Shown piece after piece: positions 1-18,484 of a stretch of DNA of 32,574 nucleotides (position 1 is its first letter; each line of letters begins with the position of its first letter). The notes under the pieces are model-generated. The model did no database searches. It was not told where the DNA came from and was given only the letters and a program-made list of their open reading frames with translations. This DNA comes from Myxococcota bacterium (lineage in GTDB: Bacteria; Myxococcota_C; UBA6777): positions 1 to 32,574 of the forward strand of contig JAKLKB010000075.1 of NCBI GenBank assembly GCA_023150835.1. Reading direction: 5' to 3'. The position numbers were made by a program, and so were the translations under genes.

Positions 1-1484
1 ATGCCTTGGAAGGGGTAGGGCTGTAGGGTGGGACGGCGACCTGCTGGACAGTTGGGGCGGGGGGAGGGTGGGCATTGGACGCGCTCGCAGCGGGTTCGGA
101 AACAAGTGAGACCTTGGTGGGTGTAGCGTTCTTTTCGGGGGACGGAGCCGTTGGGGCATCGGGGTTCGATGGATGGAGGGCAGAGGGCTTGTTCGCAGGC
201 TTCGCGCTCGCAAACGTTGCCTTGGAAGCGGTAGGTTTCGAGGACGATCCGCGCTCCGTGTGGGCATTGGAGGGGAGGGGGTTGTGGGCAGAGAGAGGGT
301 CGGCAGCGTTTGGCGAGGTAGGCCATGCCGCGCCAATCTCGGGGTTTGGTGATGACCCGTTCGCCGGGAGCGCATACAAGAGGGACACACATCAAGCGTT
401 CGCAGAGTTGGCCGTTGTGCCACTGTTGCTGCTTTTTAAGTGTTTCATCTTCGCCGTCACACGGGGGAATCGGCCATTCAGGGCATTGAGCGGCCATGCA
501 AGTCGTGCGTTGGCAAAGGCGGCCAAAGTGATCGTAGGTTTGGGTTTGGGGGGTGTAGCCATAAGCGCATCGGGTGATCGGATCGGGAGGGCAAGGCAGT
601 TCGGTGCAGGCGGTGGTCGTGCAAAGACGCCCACCCATGCGGTAGGTACGGGTGTTGGGTTGTGTCCCGGGAGGGCAAGAGACAGGGCCGGGATCGGGTG
701 GGCAGTTTCGTTCGGTGCAGATCTGCTTTTGGCAAAGGCGGCCTAGGTGGGCATAAGAGATCGTCTTGAGGTCTTCGTCTTCGTCGCAGTGTGGTGCTGG
801 AGAGGGCGGACATTCGGGCATTTTGCAGATGTAGCGGCTACAGTTTTTCCCGTTGTAGGGGTAGGTTTGAAGGGCGGGGGTGGCTCCGGGGGGGCAGCGC
901 GGGGCGAGCAGGGTGGGGCAAGTTTGGCGAACGCAGCGTAGGCGCATACAGCGCAAGCCTTCGAGGTAGTAGGGTTCGGTTTGTGTTTGAAAACCGGGCT
1001 GGCATCGGACGGGCTGTGGTGGCGGGCATTGTAGAGGTTTGCAGCGCACACGTTCACAGGTCTGGCCGTGATAGCGATACAGTTCGAGATCGGCAAATTG
1101 CCCGGGCGGGCAGGGCATCTCGCGAACGGCGGGGCATCGGGCAAAGACGCACCGAAAGCGTTTGCATCGCAAGTTGCCTTGGCGGTAGGTCGAGGCGCGC
1201 AAGGCAAATCCGCTGCGGCATCTGGGGCGTTTGGGTGCGGGGCAACGCGGTTGGATGCAGATCGTGCGATAGCAGACGTGGTTGAGGTGGAGAAAAGATT
1301 GGATGGTGGGGTATTCGTTTCGGCGGCAAGAGGGGGGGTTGTCGATGGGGCATGGATCGACAGCGGGTCCTTGAGAGGGAAGGGGGGAGGGTTGCCCGAC
1401 GGGTGGGGGTTGGTTTGGATCGTAGGGCGGTGGGGGTTGGTTCGGATCGTCGCAAAGAACACGGCGCAGGAAAAAAGTATCCAT
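1..1484 (-). CDS. Cys-rich tandem-repeat protein (partial, runs off left edge)
   Basis: The minus-strand frame is open from an ATG at 1484 to base 1 and encodes about 494 residues without a stop. I do not recognise the family. After a Pro-rich stretch (DPNQPPPPYDPNQPPPVGQ) come about eleven degenerate units of ~36 residues. The pattern is roughly C-P-x-G, about 8 residues, Y-x3-G-x2-C, x5, C, x4, C-P-P, x4-6, giving four Cys per unit, as in RCPPGATPALQTYPYNGKNC. Regular Cys spacing indicates a disulfide-stabilised extracellular repeat protein (inference). From this ATG there is no signal peptide. An overlapping ATG at 1489 in another frame begins MKWILFSCAVFFA, which does look like an export signal, so a one-base frameshift between signal and body is suspected. 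The other two minus frames are Pro/Arg/Ser-rich with no Cys periodicity and look like shadows. The gene ends close to the PP2C phosphatase on the same strand. Confidence 0.72.
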   Translation of the reverse strand, partial: MDTFFLRRVLCDDPNQPPPPYDPNQPPPVGQPSPLPSQGPAVDPCPIDNPPSCRRNEYPTIQSFLHLNHVCYRTICIQPRCPAPKRPRCRSGFALRASTYRQGNLRCKRFRCVFARCPAVREMPCPPGQFADLELYRYHGQTCERVRCKPLQCPPPQPVRCQPGFQTQTEPYYLEGLRCMRLRCVRQTCPTLLAPRCPPGATPALQTYPYNGKNCSRYICKMPECPPSPAPHCDEDEDLKTISYAHLGRLCQKQICTERNCPPDPGPVSCPPGTQPNTRTYRMGGRLCTTTACTELPCPPDPITRCAYGYTPQTQTYDHFGRLCQRTTCMAAQCPEWPIPPCDGEDETLKKQQQWHNGQLCERLMCVPLVCAPGERVITKPRDWRGMAYLAKRCRPSLCPQPPPLQCPHGARIVLETYRFQGNVCEREACEQALCPPSIEPRCPNGSVPRKERYTHQGLTCFRTRCERVQCPPSPRPNCPAGRRPTLQPYPFQG

Positions 1485-1611
1485 TTCATGGACGTTTCGG
1501 GACTCCGAGGTTATGTGTCGATCGAGTGGGTCGGCGTGAAGCGACGGGCAAAGTGATGTAGTGAGACGAAGCAAAGCAAGATATCTTCAACGAGCAGCGA
1601 TGACGGTGTCG

Positions 1612-2772
1612 TTATCGCCTACGATGGTGTATTTTCCGTCGGTAGTATCGAGTTTTTCGCCGTGTTTTTGGTCGCATTGAGCGTTTGCGATGGAGCTTGC
1701 GGCGTCTGTTGCGTATTTTTCGGCGAGGGTAGCGAGGCTTGCGTTGTGTGGTGTTCGTTTGGCGAGGGGGAGAGATCAAGACGCTTGGGACAGCGTAGCG
1801 TGGCGGAGGAAGCGGTAGAGAGCGGGTTTGGATAGAGGGAGCGGGCGGTGGTTGGTGGAGTGTGGTGGAGGCGGTCGGCCAAAAGAGCAGGACAGCTAAG
1901 AACAAAGTCCAGATCGCAAATCCCCATGCGAAGGGAGTTTGAGGCTTTGTGTAATCAGCGATCAGCAGCGTGGTGTTGTCTTTTCCGCCGTTGTGGTTGG
2001 CTGATTCGACCATGCGTTCGGCTGCAAGGACGGGATCAGACAGGTGGGTTAGAGTGTGGAGGATATCTTGGTTGGAGAGCATGGCGGTGAGGCCGTCGGA
2101 GCAGAGCAACAAGCGGTCGCCGTGTTGGAGCGCGATCGGTGAGGTGGGGGATTCAACGTCGACTTCGGGGAGACGGCCAAGAACGCGGGTGATCAGGTTG
2201 GTTTTGGCATTTTCTGTGGATTGGCCTTGTTGTTTCATTCGCTCGATGGCGGAGTGATCGCGTGTCACTTGGAGCAGCGATTGCTCGCGCAAGAGATAGA
2301 GTCGGCTATCTCCGACGTGTGCGACGTAGGCTTGATCTTCGATCACCAAAACAGCGACGACGGTGGACCCCATCTGCTTGAGTTTTTCTTGGGTTTTGGA
2401 GGCGCTATGGATGGCGAGATTGGCAGCTTGGATGGCTTCGCACAACACGGAGCGAGGTTGCCATCGGAGCTTGTGGTGGGCGGTTTCTACGGTGCGTGTG
2501 ATCGCTTCGATGGCGAGCTTGCTGGCGATATCTCCGCCTTGATAACCGCCCATACCATCGCAGACAACGCCTAAAAATCCGAGCGGGACGGAGAGGATGG
2601 TAAAAGCATCTTGGTTGCTTTTGCGTCGGATGCCGACATCGGTACGTGCAGCGATGCGGTAGGTGGGCGCGATCGTAAGCTGCTGGTGTTGATAAAAGCG
2701 TTTGGGTTCAAACGAGGTTGCAGGAGGCGATGAATCGTGTGTTTGGGATGTGTGGGGAAGAGGGGTCGCCAT
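1612..2772 (-). CDS. PP2C-family Ser/Thr protein phosphatase with C-terminal membrane anchor
   Basis: Metal-dependent phosphatase of the bacterial PP2C/Stp1 type, which removes phosphate from Ser/Thr in counterpart to Hanks-type kinases. Visible motifs are RTDVG (~43), a QD pair (~54), CDGMGG (~71-76), GSTVV (~136), VGDSRLY (~154-160), TRDHS (~169), LCSDGL (~226) and GKDNTT (~264); the metal-binding Asp residues are all present. A single TM segment follows the catalytic domain (FAWGFAIWTLFLAVLLFW, ~280-298), so catalysis should be cytoplasmic with a tail outside. That tail becomes an implausible Arg/Lys-rich run after ~residue 330. Another frame here reads a balanced sequence ending VGDNDTVIAAR at a stop at 1587-1589, suggesting one extra base in the G5 tract at 1766-1770. 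No kinase gene is visible nearby. Confidence 0.93.
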   Translation of the reverse strand: MATPLPHTSQTHDSSPPATSFEPKRFYQHQQLTIAPTYRIAARTDVGIRRKSNQDAFTILSVPLGFLGVVCDGMGGYQGGDIASKLAIEAITRTVETAHHKLRWQPRSVLCEAIQAANLAIHSASKTQEKLKQMGSTVVAVLVIEDQAYVAHVGDSRLYLLREQSLLQVTRDHSAIERMKQQGQSTENAKTNLITRVLGRLPEVDVESPTSPIALQHGDRLLLCSDGLTAMLSNQDILHTLTHLSDPVLAAERMVESANHNGGKDNTTLLIADYTKPQTPFAWGFAIWTLFLAVLLFWPTASTTLHQPPPAPSIQTRSLPLPPPRYAVPSVLISPPRQTNTTQRKPRYPRRKIRNRRRKLHRKRSMRPKTRRKTRYYRRKIHHRRR

Positions 2773-2877: not shown

Positions 2878-3055
2878 ACGAAACCTTGTGGGGAACGGTT
2901 GCAAAAGTCGAGTGTAGACGCTTTTTGGGGGATTGGCTAGAAGTATGTGCGGGGGCGACGTTGACAGCGTGGGGCGTCCTGAATACAACAAGGGGGCTTT
3001 GTTCCGCTCTTTTTCGCTATTCTTTTCTTTTCAACAAGCAAGGAGGACGTCGCTC

Positions 3056-4132
3056 ATGCAAAAGCGAATCCGACAGTCTCTGGTATGTTTTGGCTTTTTG
3101 GTGCTGTCGCTTGGATCGATGGGCTGCAACACCGAACTCAAACGTGCGCGTGAATCGGTACAAAAGAAAGACTTTGCCCAAGCTGCTGATCTGTATGAAA
3201 ACGTGCTGAAAAAAGATCCTGAAAACGAAGAGGCGATGCGCGAGCTGACGCAGCTTTACTGCGAAACGATCAAGAACAACTTCAAGTGTTCAACCAAAGT
3301 CGAAGATCTGTACAAAAAATTCCCTACAGATAACAAGATTAAAGGGTGGTACAAGGAGGCCGTGTTTGGCCGCGCCAAGAGCCTTTATATGCAGCAACAA
3401 TTGAAGGCCGCGATCGGTAGCCTTGAAGATTACACCAAGCTCGTGAAAGACGATGGTACGGCGTACTTTATGTTCGGCAACATCAAGTTCCGCCTCAACA
3501 AAAACCCGCCCTATACGAGCAGTCAGATCGACGAGCTCAAGAAAGCGGTGGATTATTTTGCGTTGGCGGTCAAACACTCGAAAACAACGGACAAGTTAGC
3601 CATGTTCGATGAAAATGTCGAAAGCTTGGTGCAATGGGAAGCCCACGTCCAAACAGGCGTGATCTACAAATCTTTTTTGATGGAAGACTTCAAAAAATTC
3701 CAAGCCGAGCAAGAGGGCAAAACGCCTGCGGCTCCGAGAAAACGCGGCAAAAAAGGTAAAAAAGGTAAGGTGGCCGAAGAAGAAGGTCCGAAGTTTGCCC
3801 CGAACAAAGAATACTTTGACAAAGCGGTGGCCGCGATGGAGGCCGCTGCAAAAGTTCCCCAACCCAACAAGCACAAAGCCTTTTTCCCTTATTTTGAGAT
3901 CGGTGTGATGTACACGATGCTCAAGAGTGATCCTGAAAAGGGCCTTGAGTGGTTGAAAAAAGCCTATGCCCTCAATGAGATCGATATGTCTGTAATCGGA
4001 AACCTCAAGATGGTGTACGATATGTTGGCTGAAAAGGCCGAAAAGGCGGACGAAAAAGACAAAAAGGCTGAATACGAAAAACTTTCCCAAGAGTACGCAG
4101 CCAAGATGGAGTCTTTGCAAGGAAAACGTTGA
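3056..4132 (+). CDS. TPR-like outer-membrane or periplasmic lipoprotein
   Basis: Predicted lipoprotein of 358 residues. The ATG at 3056 is chosen because AAGGAGG lies 8-9 bases upstream and the translation begins with a lipoprotein signal (MQKRIRQSLVCFGFLVLSLG, then SMGC with Cys ~23). The mature part is Lys/Glu-rich and helical. It has TPR-like units at the N-terminus (ARESVQKKDFAQAADLYENV) and near residues 120-180 and 265-320, a Lys-rich basic insert (KRGKKGKKGK, ~230), and a long charged helix at the end. Proteins of this kind act as periplasmic scaffolds, but no specific partner can be assigned. The 3' end is repeated downstream as a decayed fragment (4154-4282). The body uses AAA/GAA codons heavily and is less GC-rich than its neighbours. 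Confidence 0.9.
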   Translation: MQKRIRQSLVCFGFLVLSLGSMGCNTELKRARESVQKKDFAQAADLYENVLKKDPENEEAMRELTQLYCETIKNNFKCSTKVEDLYKKFPTDNKIKGWYKEAVFGRAKSLYMQQQLKAAIGSLEDYTKLVKDDGTAYFMFGNIKFRLNKNPPYTSSQIDELKKAVDYFALAVKHSKTTDKLAMFDENVESLVQWEAHVQTGVIYKSFLMEDFKKFQAEQEGKTPAAPRKRGKKGKKGKVAEEEGPKFAPNKEYFDKAVAAMEAAAKVPQPNKHKAFFPYFEIGVMYTMLKSDPEKGLEWLKKAYALNEIDMSVIGNLKMVYDMLAEKAEKADEKDKKAEYEKLSQEYAAKMESLQGKR

Positions 4133-15991: not shown

Positions 15992-18310
15992 TTAGAAGCG
16001 CTGGGAGGGAGCACGTTGTCGGACAAAGAGAAGGGCAAAGAGCAAGAAGAGGGCGAATGGAAGGGGGAAAGAGGTGGGTGGAGACGTTTGGCAGCTACAG
16101 CCTGCGCCTGTGGGAGCGAGTTTTGCTTTGCAGGCGGGATCTTGTGTGCAAGAGGGGTCGTTGCAGCGTTGAGAGCAGGGCGGGTTGAGGACGGTGGGTG
16201 CGGGCCAACAAGCGCTTGCTTGGAGGCAAGTGTAGCCTGTGGGGCATGCGCTATCGTTGGTACAAGGTCGCGAACAGCGGGAAGTTCCGCTGACTTCGGC
16301 GCAAAGATCGGTTTGGCAGTCGGCGTGTTGTGAGCAGATATCGCCGACAGGTCGTTTGTTGGTGGGGCAGGGCAGGTCGCCGTCTTTGCAGTCTTCGTCG
16401 ATGCCGTTGCCGCAGATCTCGGTGGCATTGGGGTGGATCTTGGGATCGTTGTCGTTGCAGTCTTGGGGGCCTTGGCAGTCGGGGCCGACACCATAGCCGT
16501 CTTTGTCTTTGTCTACGCAGTTCGTTGTACCGCAAGGACGGTCGCCTGCGGCGCAGTCTTCGTCGATGCCATTGCCGCAGATCTCAGGTGCGCCCGGATA
16601 GATCTTGGGATCGTTGTCGTTGCAATCGAAAGGCTCGGGGCATCCGACTTTTTGAGCGAAGTATCCGTCTTTGTCTTTGTCTTCGCAGGTGGGAGGGCAG
16701 GGCATATCGCCGTCTTTGCAGTCTTCGTCGATGCCGTTGCCGCAGATCTCGCGTGCACCCGGGTGGATCTTGGGATCGTTGTCGTTGCAGTCTTGGGGGC
16801 CTTGGCAGTCAGGGCCGACTCCGTAGCCGTCTTTGTCTTTGTCTACACAGTTGATCTTTGCAGAGACGGTGATCTCGATGGATAGGGCGGGTCCAAAGCG
16901 CTTGCCTTGTGCTTCGAGTTGCCAAGTGTTTTTGAAGGTTCCTGTGGTCGAAGGGGCTGTAAAGTTTGCTTGAAATGCCTTGGTTTGGCCGGTCTTGATC
17001 TGATCGGCAGAAGCGAGGTCGATGCGCGAGAGGCCGAGATCATCGCCTCCTGTGCGGACGAGCGCATAACCATCCGCACGAGACCACACGGTGGTTCCGA
17101 TGTTTTCGAGGGTCCATGTCTTTTGGAAGGCGTCGCCTGCTTGGACAGCGATGGGGTTGGGTGGGCTTTCTTGAGTGAGTTTGGCATCGTCGACGGGGGC
17201 GGCTGCGACATTTGCGATGTCGGAGCCTGTGTAATAATGGCGGATGATCTGTTCGGCTGTTTTTCCGCATTTGCCCATGGCTTCGGCTCCACGCTGACAG
17301 AGGCCGACACGATGCCCATACACGCCCCAACAAGTGCTGTTGCTGGGTTGTCCTTTGCAGATCACGGTGCAGGCTCCTGTCTTGTTTTCGATGCAGTCCA
17401 CAGACTGAAGGTAGGGAAGGGCTGTGGAAGACCACCCTGCGTCTTTGTTGCTGCGTGTGCTTCCGCCGCAGCTTGCGGCAAAATAGCCGCCCACAAGGGA
17501 AGTTCCGTGTACCGCGACTTGGGAGCGGGTTTCATCGACAGCGCGGGTGGTTGAGGCGTATTGGGTGGTTCCCCAGACTTGGCATTGTGTGGTGATGCAG
17601 ATCGCCTTGGTTCCGCCGCGTGTGTAGCTAACGGTGTAGCTTCTTGCGGCGATGGCTTGGGCTTTTTGGGCTTCGAGAGGAAAAGAAGATCCGATCTCTT
17701 TGGGCAGGACGCCTTTGAGGTATTCTTCGAGGGGCAGCTTGAGTTTTCCGCCGGGTGGAAGGGAAGTTCCGCCGACTTGGTAGGTGGTGGAAGTATTGTT
17801 TTCGATCTCGATGGTGGCAGGGACGGGATAGGTGGGGGCGTAAGGGATGGGGTCGAAAGGACGAGGGATATCCATCGGAGCAGGCTGTTCTTGGTGTCGG
17901 TGCTGGAGGGTTTCAGGAGCGCGGATCAGACGGTCTGCTTCGGCAAGCCGAGCCAGCGGTGGCAGCGCGATCAGGATATCACGGTGATGAGAAGGTGAGA
18001 GGTAGGCTTGGGTCGTACTCATATAACCCGCAGCTTCGGCGCGGATCGCGTAGCTGGATCGAGAAGGAGCCACAAACCGATGATGGCCGTTTGAGTCGCT
18101 GATTCCGAGGCGTTGGAGGCCGTCGATGTATAGCCTTGCGCCTACAATCGGCTGCTGCGTCAAGATATCGATCACGCGCACTTGCGTAAACATGGAGAGA
18201 TTGTCTGGGACACTGCGCAGCGGATGCGGAGTTCCCGCGCTGAGCAAGAGAGCCAAGCAAGCCCCCCCCAACCAAAGCAGACGTTTCAAGAAAAAACCAG
18301 CGTTCTGCAT
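15992..18310 (-). CDS. Surface protein: SpoIID/LytB domain, FW domain, MopE repeats, MYXO-CTERM-like tail
   Basis: A modular exported protein of 772 residues. The ATG at 18310 has AAAGG eight bases upstream. Order: signal peptide ~1-27; carboxypeptidase-regulatory-like beta domain ~43-115; SpoIID/LytB domain ~190-365 with LEEYLKGVLPKEIGSSFPLE (conserved acidic pair E195/E196) and GHRVGLCQRGAEAM; an NBR1/FW-type Ig domain ~388-482 (AVQAGDAFQKTWTLENIGTTVW); three MopE-type metal-binding Cys repeats ~488-650 (each DKDKDGY, DCNDNDPKI, EICGNGIDEDC); a Cys-rich stretch ~655-730; and a tail with GAGCSC, hydrophobic ~749-763, then RQR. In sporulating Firmicutes SpoIID is a lytic transglycosylase for denuded peptidoglycan, so cell-wall remodelling is a reasonable inference. 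Repeats 1 and 3 are near-identical in DNA. A bidirectional terminator follows the gene. Confidence 0.93.
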   Translation of the reverse strand: MQNAGFFLKRLLWLGGACLALLLSAGTPHPLRSVPDNLSMFTQVRVIDILTQQPIVGARLYIDGLQRLGISDSNGHHRFVAPSRSSYAIRAEAAGYMSTTQAYLSPSHHRDILIALPPLARLAEADRLIRAPETLQHRHQEQPAPMDIPRPFDPIPYAPTYPVPATIEIENNTSTTYQVGGTSLPPGGKLKLPLEEYLKGVLPKEIGSSFPLEAQKAQAIAARSYTVSYTRGGTKAICITTQCQVWGTTQYASTTRAVDETRSQVAVHGTSLVGGYFAASCGGSTRSNKDAGWSSTALPYLQSVDCIENKTGACTVICKGQPSNSTCWGVYGHRVGLCQRGAEAMGKCGKTAEQIIRHYYTGSDIANVAAAPVDDAKLTQESPPNPIAVQAGDAFQKTWTLENIGTTVWSRADGYALVRTGGDDLGLSRIDLASADQIKTGQTKAFQANFTAPSTTGTFKNTWQLEAQGKRFGPALSIEITVSAKINCVDKDKDGYGVGPDCQGPQDCNDNDPKIHPGAREICGNGIDEDCKDGDMPCPPTCEDKDKDGYFAQKVGCPEPFDCNDNDPKIYPGAPEICGNGIDEDCAAGDRPCGTTNCVDKDKDGYGVGPDCQGPQDCNDNDPKIHPNATEICGNGIDEDCKDGDLPCPTNKRPVGDICSQHADCQTDLCAEVSGTSRCSRPCTNDSACPTGYTCLQASACWPAPTVLNPPCSQRCNDPSCTQDPACKAKLAPTGAGCSCQTSPPTSFPLPFALFLLFALLFVRQRAPSQRF

Positions 18311-18484
18311 CAAAGCAACCTTTCTGGGCCGATATCGCGGAATGACCCACCGCCCTTTTTGCTCTTTGCGATGTCACCCACCAACATGCTTTGACTGCAC
18401 GCGGACGGTGGACATACGGCTCAAAACATCTAGCACATCTCGTTGGTTATCGGCAAGATCAACAAAAAAGAGTCCACGGAAAAC

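What the first reader, a model, noticed from the sequence alone, without database searches (positions are those of the whole stretch)
1..1484. Unrecognised four-Cys tandem-repeat protein hidden by misleading reading frames
Seen: one minus-strand frame is stop-free for at least 1484 bases and encodes ~11 units of ~36 residues with constant Cys spacing (C, ~17, C, 5, C, 4, C) and a conserved Y-x3-G before the second Cys. One unit near 340-420 lacks its first Cys spacing. The other frames are Pro/Arg-rich and would mislead automatic callers. The architecture resembles disulfide-knit adhesins or toxin-like repeat proteins, but no known family comes to mind.
Basis: partly seen in the sequence, partly recalled or inferred. 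Interest (0 to 1): 0.7.

Follow-up and report, generated by a model that had tools for sequence, protein, structure and literature searches.

The report
Lineage-specific four-cysteine hairpin repeat protein
The left end of this contig holds the first half of a real gene for a large exported bacterial protein built from about 21 copies of a 36-residue, four-cysteine beta-hairpin unit; it matches no catalogued family, was found only in a small Myxococcota-like lineage, and probably works as a disulfide-stapled, positively charged surface stalk or adhesin.

Summary
Minus-strand 3..1454 encodes 11 complete four-Cys units (C-x7-C-x17-C-x4-C-x4), one conserved two-Cys unit (291-374) and a unit cut by the contig end. 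The gene continues on contig C96 of the same genome. A same-genus MAG has the whole gene unbroken (887 aa, 21 units); two other genera have 23 and 24 units. The Cys frame is under purifying selection (dN/dS 0.16). Every Cys in the arrays belongs to an even set. The degenerate unit loses C2 and C3 together in all orthologues, pointing to C2-C3 and C1-C4 disulfides. AlphaFold2 gives each unit as a beta-hairpin (pLDDT 92-93). No Pfam, NCBIfam or PDB family matches. It was found in four of the five genomes held for its phylum (the fifth breaks just before it) and in none of several hundred others. It always follows a membrane PP2C phosphatase gene. Short secreted paralogues exist, one with six Cys per unit. 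Best reading: an exported, possibly lipid-anchored, cationic stalk/adhesin, comparable in role to the Cys-rich repeats of TraA but unrelated in sequence. Toxin activity has no support. In the window's allele the signal peptide and the repeats lie in different frames.

The parts
1448..1489 (-). Probable true start: ATG at 1489 with signal-peptide-like MKWILFSCAVFFAT, in a different frame from the repeats
   Evidence: The same peptide (MKWILFSCVVLFST) begins the unbroken 887-aa orthologue in G001; the window lacks a net 91 bases just after it
1353..1454 (-). Pro/Gln-rich N-terminal spacer in the Cys frame (CDDPNQPPPPYDPNQPPPVGQPSP...)
   Evidence: Translation and alignment with G001
1245..1352 (-). 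Unit 1, four Cys
1137..1244 (-). Unit 2, four Cys
1029..1136 (-). Unit 3, four Cys
921..1028 (-). Unit 4, four Cys
   Evidence: single-unit AlphaFold2 model
813..920 (-). Unit 5, four Cys
705..812 (-). Unit 6, four Cys
594..704 (-). Unit 7, four Cys
486..593 (-). Unit 8, four Cys
375..485 (-). Unit 9, four Cys
291..374 (-). Unit 10, degenerate: 28 residues, keeps C1 and C4, lacks C2 and C3; the same in all orthologues
183..290 (-). Unit 11, four Cys
75..182 (-). Unit 12, four Cys
3..74 (-). Unit 13, cut by the contig end; continues on G000:C96 with a 13-base end overlap
1612..2772 (-). PP2C Ser/Thr phosphatase with one predicted TM segment (~279-297) and a Pro- then Arg/Lys-rich tail; next gene upstream on the same strand
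   Evidence: Pfam PP2C_2 E 3e-17; syntenic in G001, G003, G004 and, truncated by a contig end, G002
2933..4132 (+). TPR protein, probable lipoprotein (LGSMGC); divergent neighbour conserved in all five genomes

Best explanation
Shown: this is the 5' half of a gene for a large tandem-repeat protein (21-24 units of 36 residues) with an N-terminal signal-peptide-like start, conserved in order and position directly behind a membrane PP2C phosphatase gene. Predicted: each unit is an independent beta-hairpin stapled by two disulfides (most likely C1-C4 and C2-C3). Inferred: the chain is exported through Sec, oxidised in the periplasm by the organism's DsbA/VKOR system, and in some species held in a membrane by a lipid on its first Cys. 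The beads-on-a-string array then forms a stiff, protease-resistant, positively charged stalk or adhesin that holds on to anionic polymers of its own or neighbouring cell envelopes. Short secreted paralogues with 3-8 units would be soluble versions of the same module. The PP2C gene is probably co-transcribed and would tie its production or use to Ser/Thr phosphorylation signalling; that link rests on gene order alone.
For: Coding and selection: dN/dS 0.16 in the Cys frame. Uninterrupted orthologues of 887, 1047 and 1012 aa. Export: signal-peptide-like N-termini in all, with a clear lipobox LVGC in G004; the short paralogues also begin with signal-peptide-like sequences. Disulfides: Cys from the first unit to the end number 82, 94, 90, 12, 20 and 48, always even, 4 per unit (6 in one paralogue) minus 2 for the degenerate unit; unit 10 loses C2 and C3 together. 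Unit boundary: linkers of 50-77 residues and a 13-residue spacer fall only between C4 and the next C1. Fold: AlphaFold2 pLDDT 93 and 92, hairpin strands 13-22 and 25-34. Fixed architecture: units 1-10 are usually each most like the same-numbered unit in other genera. Charge: net +77 to +192. DsbA and a VKOR-DsbA fusion present. Synteny with PP2C.
Against: No functional data and no match to any adhesin. Surface exposure and anchoring are inferred: only G004 has a textbook lipobox, and the short paralogues have none. Zinc binding by the Cys is not excluded by the model alone. The window's allele is frame-broken after the signal peptide, so in this assembly the protein would not be exported as written. 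The N-terminal half in the window's genus is only mildly basic (net +24).
Confidence: 0.5

Rival explanations
1. Multi-headed secreted protease inhibitor or cationic antimicrobial array: each small disulfide-rich hairpin acts on its own as an inhibitor or membrane-active peptide.
For: Short 3-8 unit paralogues with signal-peptide-like starts and no obvious lipobox; strong positive charge in some members; a hairpin with two disulfides is a common inhibitor or peptide scaffold (general knowledge).
Against: No match to any inhibitor or peptide family. The 21-24 unit array keeps its unit order across genera and sits behind a PP2C gene, which suits a structural or signalling role better. No hypervariable reactive-site loop was looked for.
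Confidence: 0.15
2. Envelope sensor partnered with the PP2C: the repeat protein meets the phosphatase's extracytoplasmic tail and controls it, the array being the ligand-sensing part of a signalling pair.
For: Adjacent same-strand genes in four genomes, with the same divergent TPR gene next to them. Three of the four fully read PP2Cs have a TM segment followed by a long Pro/Arg-rich tail.
Against: Gene order only. The G004 PP2C ends right after its TM and has no tail. Each genome has 9-13 PP2C matches, so proximity to one could reflect co-regulation alone.
Confidence: 0.2
3. Metal-binding (zinc ribbon or knuckle) repeat rather than disulfide repeat.
For: Four Cys per small beta unit.
Against: Signal peptides place it outside the cytoplasm. 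C-x7-C...C-x4-C is not a usual zinc-knuckle spacing (general knowledge). The degenerate unit keeps exactly two Cys and one paralogue adds exactly two, the pattern expected of disulfides.
Confidence: 0.05
4. Chance open frame in GC-rich DNA or assembly artefact.
For: The window allele has a frame break next to the signal peptide and the contig ends in the array.
Against: Orthologues in three other assemblies, purifying selection, and regularity far above shuffles.
Confidence: 0.01

Closest known systems
TraA Cys-rich tandem repeat, TIGR04201 (Myxococcus xanthus outer-membrane exchange receptor; PMC3325183)
   Same: Secreted, Cys-rich tandem repeats presumed disulfide-bonded; proposed there to serve as a rigid stalk on the cell surface
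   Different: TIGR04201 repeats have three invariant and two marginal Cys and follow a PA14 domain, with a MYXO-CTERM tag at the end (PMC3325183); here four Cys in a different spacing, 21-24 units, and no NCBIfam match. No PA14 domain was detected in the window's part
Von Willebrand factor type C (VWC) domains, e.g. VWF C4, PDB 6fwn
   Same: Top structural hit in both aligners; small disulfide-stapled beta units; a C-x4-C-P motif is shared, by recollection
   Different: Match not significant: Foldseek E 0.54, VIA Z 2.9, rmsd 3.7 over 61 residues, 10% identity; no Pfam match
Large disulfide-rich repeat stalks in general (EGF-, sushi- or FNI-type arrays in eukaryotes)
   Same: Beads-on-a-string arrays of small disulfide-stapled beta modules with fixed unit order
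   Different: No sequence or significant fold similarity

Membership tests
TraA Cys-rich repeat TIGR04201 | Match to the NCBIfam model | tested here: not met
   0 NCBIfam families up to E 1 for the window protein; 33 three-unit segments matched only unrelated families
TraA Cys-rich repeat TIGR04201 | N-terminal PA14 domain | tested here: not met
   No Pfam domain in the window's part of the protein; the N-termini of G001, G003 and G004 go from the signal peptide to a low-complexity or short Cys segment and then the units
VWC domain | Match to the Pfam VWC model | tested here: not met
VWC domain | VWC fold | tested here: inconclusive
   Z 2.9, rmsd 3.7, 61 residues aligned to 6fwn; a single unit gave no hit with Z 2 or more
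Disulfide-rich secreted repeat protein (kind) | Signal peptide and even, unit-linked Cys | tested here: met
   signal peptides judged by eye and hydropathy, in the relatives; in the window's allele the signal peptide is out of frame
Disulfide-rich secreted repeat protein (kind) | Disulfides actually formed | not testable with these tools
   Needs mass spectrometry; the supporting Cys parity is and the DsbA/VKOR genes
Bacterial lipoprotein | Lipobox [LVI][ASTVI][GAS]C | tested here: inconclusive
   LVGC in G004; ATTC in G003 and TSRC in G001 fit poorly
Adhesin | Binding to a surface or polymer | not testable with these tools
   No assay possible

The most novel reading that the evidence does not exclude
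A new disulfide-hairpin repeat family, private to one poorly known bacterial phylum, that forms the extracellular half of a PP2C phosphatase-linked envelope sensing or adhesion system, in organisms whose genomes also carry tandem DsbA arrays to fold such proteins.
Probability: 0.15. Interest if true: 0.6.

Novelty: new variant of a known kind. Interest (0 to 1): 0.42.

Why it matters
It adds an uncatalogued repeat family, with a confidently predicted unit and a clear disulfide hypothesis, to the set of large disulfide-rich surface proteins known in bacteria. Because the units stay in fixed order across genera and always follow a PP2C gene, it gives a direct handle on envelope biology in a little-studied phylum.

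Tried and rejected
Toxin: no domain, immunity gene or delivery signal was seen, so dropped. Phage or plasmid origin: no tblastn match in phages or plasmids and no pattern match in viral contigs. A hit in G009 (E 1e-4) lies among unrelated genes and has a stop inside; chance. A hit in G002:C524 (E 0.037) has stops on both sides; chance. The absence from G002 was first read as a loss, but its contig C481 ends inside the PP2C gene just before the expected place, so it is an assembly gap. The fold search with one unit gave only short hairpins in GTPases and the like, E above 2, and nothing with Z 2 or more in the second look; the viral library gave nothing significant. Two keyword searches for Cys-rich repeats led only to TraA as an analogue. 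Empty genome searches outside the phylum carry no positive control there, so the restriction to this lineage is likely but not proven.

Full report
What is there. The window is an entire contig (C8, 32574 bases) of a 7.56-Mb, 239-contig draft genome. At its left edge one minus-strand frame is open from just above 1574 to the contig end and encodes 13 head-to-tail units, of which 11 are complete with four Cys, one (291-374) is shortened and one is cut. The consensus is C-P-x4-P-[RK]-C-x2-G-x7-Y-x-Y-x-G-x2-C-x-R-x2-C-x4. C1, P2, C9, C27 and C32 are invariant in 64 aligned units. The Cys pattern occurs 11 times against 0.03 per shuffle, and never in the other five frames.

It is a real gene. A whole-genome protein search found the same gene in a same-genus MAG (93% identity; KLAP109, 'Myxococcota bacterium') and in two other genera (42%). 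In those three the frame is uninterrupted: 887, 1047 and 1012 aa from the first Met of the signal peptide. Between the window and the MAG, dN/dS in the Cys frame is 0.16, with changes 21/13/69 at codon positions 1/2/3; the one other frame with a low ratio shares the wobble position on the opposite strand and has 24 stops. The remaining half of the window's gene lies at the end of contig C96 (382-aa frame). The two contig ends share 13 bases and are collinear with the MAG gene.

A frame break in this allele. In the MAG the protein starts MKWILFSCVVLFST and runs in frame through a Pro/Gln-rich spacer into the units. The window has the same start (ATG 1489) but lacks a net 91 bases right after it, so the signal peptide and the repeats are in different frames. 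Whether this is real or an assembly error cannot be told without reads. An automatic caller would probably start at an in-frame ATG (1484) or TTG and miss the signal peptide.

Disulfide logic. Counting Cys from the first unit to the end gives 82 (21 units), 94 (24 units) and 90 (23 units), and 12, 20 and 48 in three short paralogues; each equals four per unit (six in one paralogue), less two for the degenerate unit. That unit lies tenth in the MAG and in both other genera and loses C2 and C3 together. The simplest reading is C2-C3 and C1-C4 disulfides within the unit. Long linkers (50-77 residues) and a 13-residue spacer occur only between C4 and the next C1, so C1-C4 is the closed module. The paralogue in G004:C65 adds one Cys to each predicted strand, as expected for an extra cross-strand disulfide. 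This is inference; bonds were not measured.

Fold. AlphaFold2 on three window units with 33 rows from the four genomes gives pLDDT 93, and a single unit with 64 rows gives 92. Each unit is a beta-hairpin, strands 13-22 and 25-34, after an irregular N-terminal segment. The pTM of 0.54 for three units suggests a loose arrangement between units. Foldseek found nothing with E below 0.001 in the PDB or viral library. The second aligner gave the VWF C4 domain at Z 2.9, rmsd 3.7 over 61 residues, which is too weak to count. Profiles found no Pfam, NCBIfam or PDB sequence relatives.

Distribution. The held phylum has five genomes; four have the gene. The fifth, G002, has the same divergent TPR gene and PP2C start, but its contig ends inside the PP2C, so its state is unknown. 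None of 285 further genomes from many families, none of 195 in the phylum of G032, and none of 394 around G056 matched the profile. Phages, plasmids and viral contigs gave nothing. Short secreted relatives with three units (G000:C41), five units (G003:C116) and eight six-Cys units (G004:C65) exist in unrelated neighbourhoods.

Surroundings. In all four genomes with the gene it follows, on the same strand, a PP2C phosphatase gene with a predicted TM segment, and a TPR lipoprotein-like gene diverges from the PP2C. In three of the four the phosphatase continues past the TM into a Pro- and Arg-rich tail; in G004 it stops there. Units 1-10 are mostly each closest to the same-numbered unit in other genera, so the array is old and not homogenised. 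The genomes hold DsbA-type oxidases and a VKOR-DsbA fusion, so exported disulfides can be made.

Interpretation. What is shown: a lineage-specific, selected, exported-looking giant repeat protein with an uncatalogued unit. What is inferred: disulfide staples, extracytoplasmic location, a stiff cationic stalk or adhesin, and a functional tie to the neighbouring PP2C. The closest published parallel in role is the Cys-rich tandem repeat of TraA in myxobacteria, which its authors proposed as a rigid stalk (PMC3325183), but the repeats do not match that family's model.

Noticed in passing
G000:C128:49308-53228 (L077), G004:C54 (L079), G000:C40 (L081): Giant proteins with an N-terminal membrane or lipoprotein-like anchor and 5-8 tandem DsbA-like domains, each with its own CPFC/CPYC motif (7 in a 1426-aa frame, 8 in a 1701-aa frame, 5 in a 1084-aa frame). 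I know of no such poly-DsbA arrays; one keyword search found no paper on them.
   Followed up: partly
G000:C113:8976-10580 (L078): VKOR-DsbA-DsbA fusion of 605 aa; VKOR found in all four genomes.
   Followed up: partly
window 1612-1780: C-terminal tail of the PP2C is extremely Arg/Lys-rich beyond its TM segment; in G003 it is a run of dozens of Arg, Lys and Tyr.
   Followed up: partly
window 1448-1489: Net loss of 91 bases against the sister MAG right after the signal peptide, next to Pro-rich repetitive sequence; possible slippage site.
   Followed up: partly
G004:C65:73304-74410 (L024 5304-6410): Paralogue with eight units of six Cys (CPPYATPRCTRGYKTKCTYFSYRGKRCIKRCTC), a natural variant with a probable extra disulfide.
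   Followed up: partly
G000:C96 (L021) and G001:C204 (L018): Pro/His-rich linker (HRPHPTFRP repeats) before the last three units differs in length, 76 against 58 residues, between two members of one genus.
   Followed up: no
window 15992-18313: SpoIID-domain protein with MopE-type putative metal-binding motifs and an N_BRCA1_IG domain, an unusual combination.
   Followed up: no
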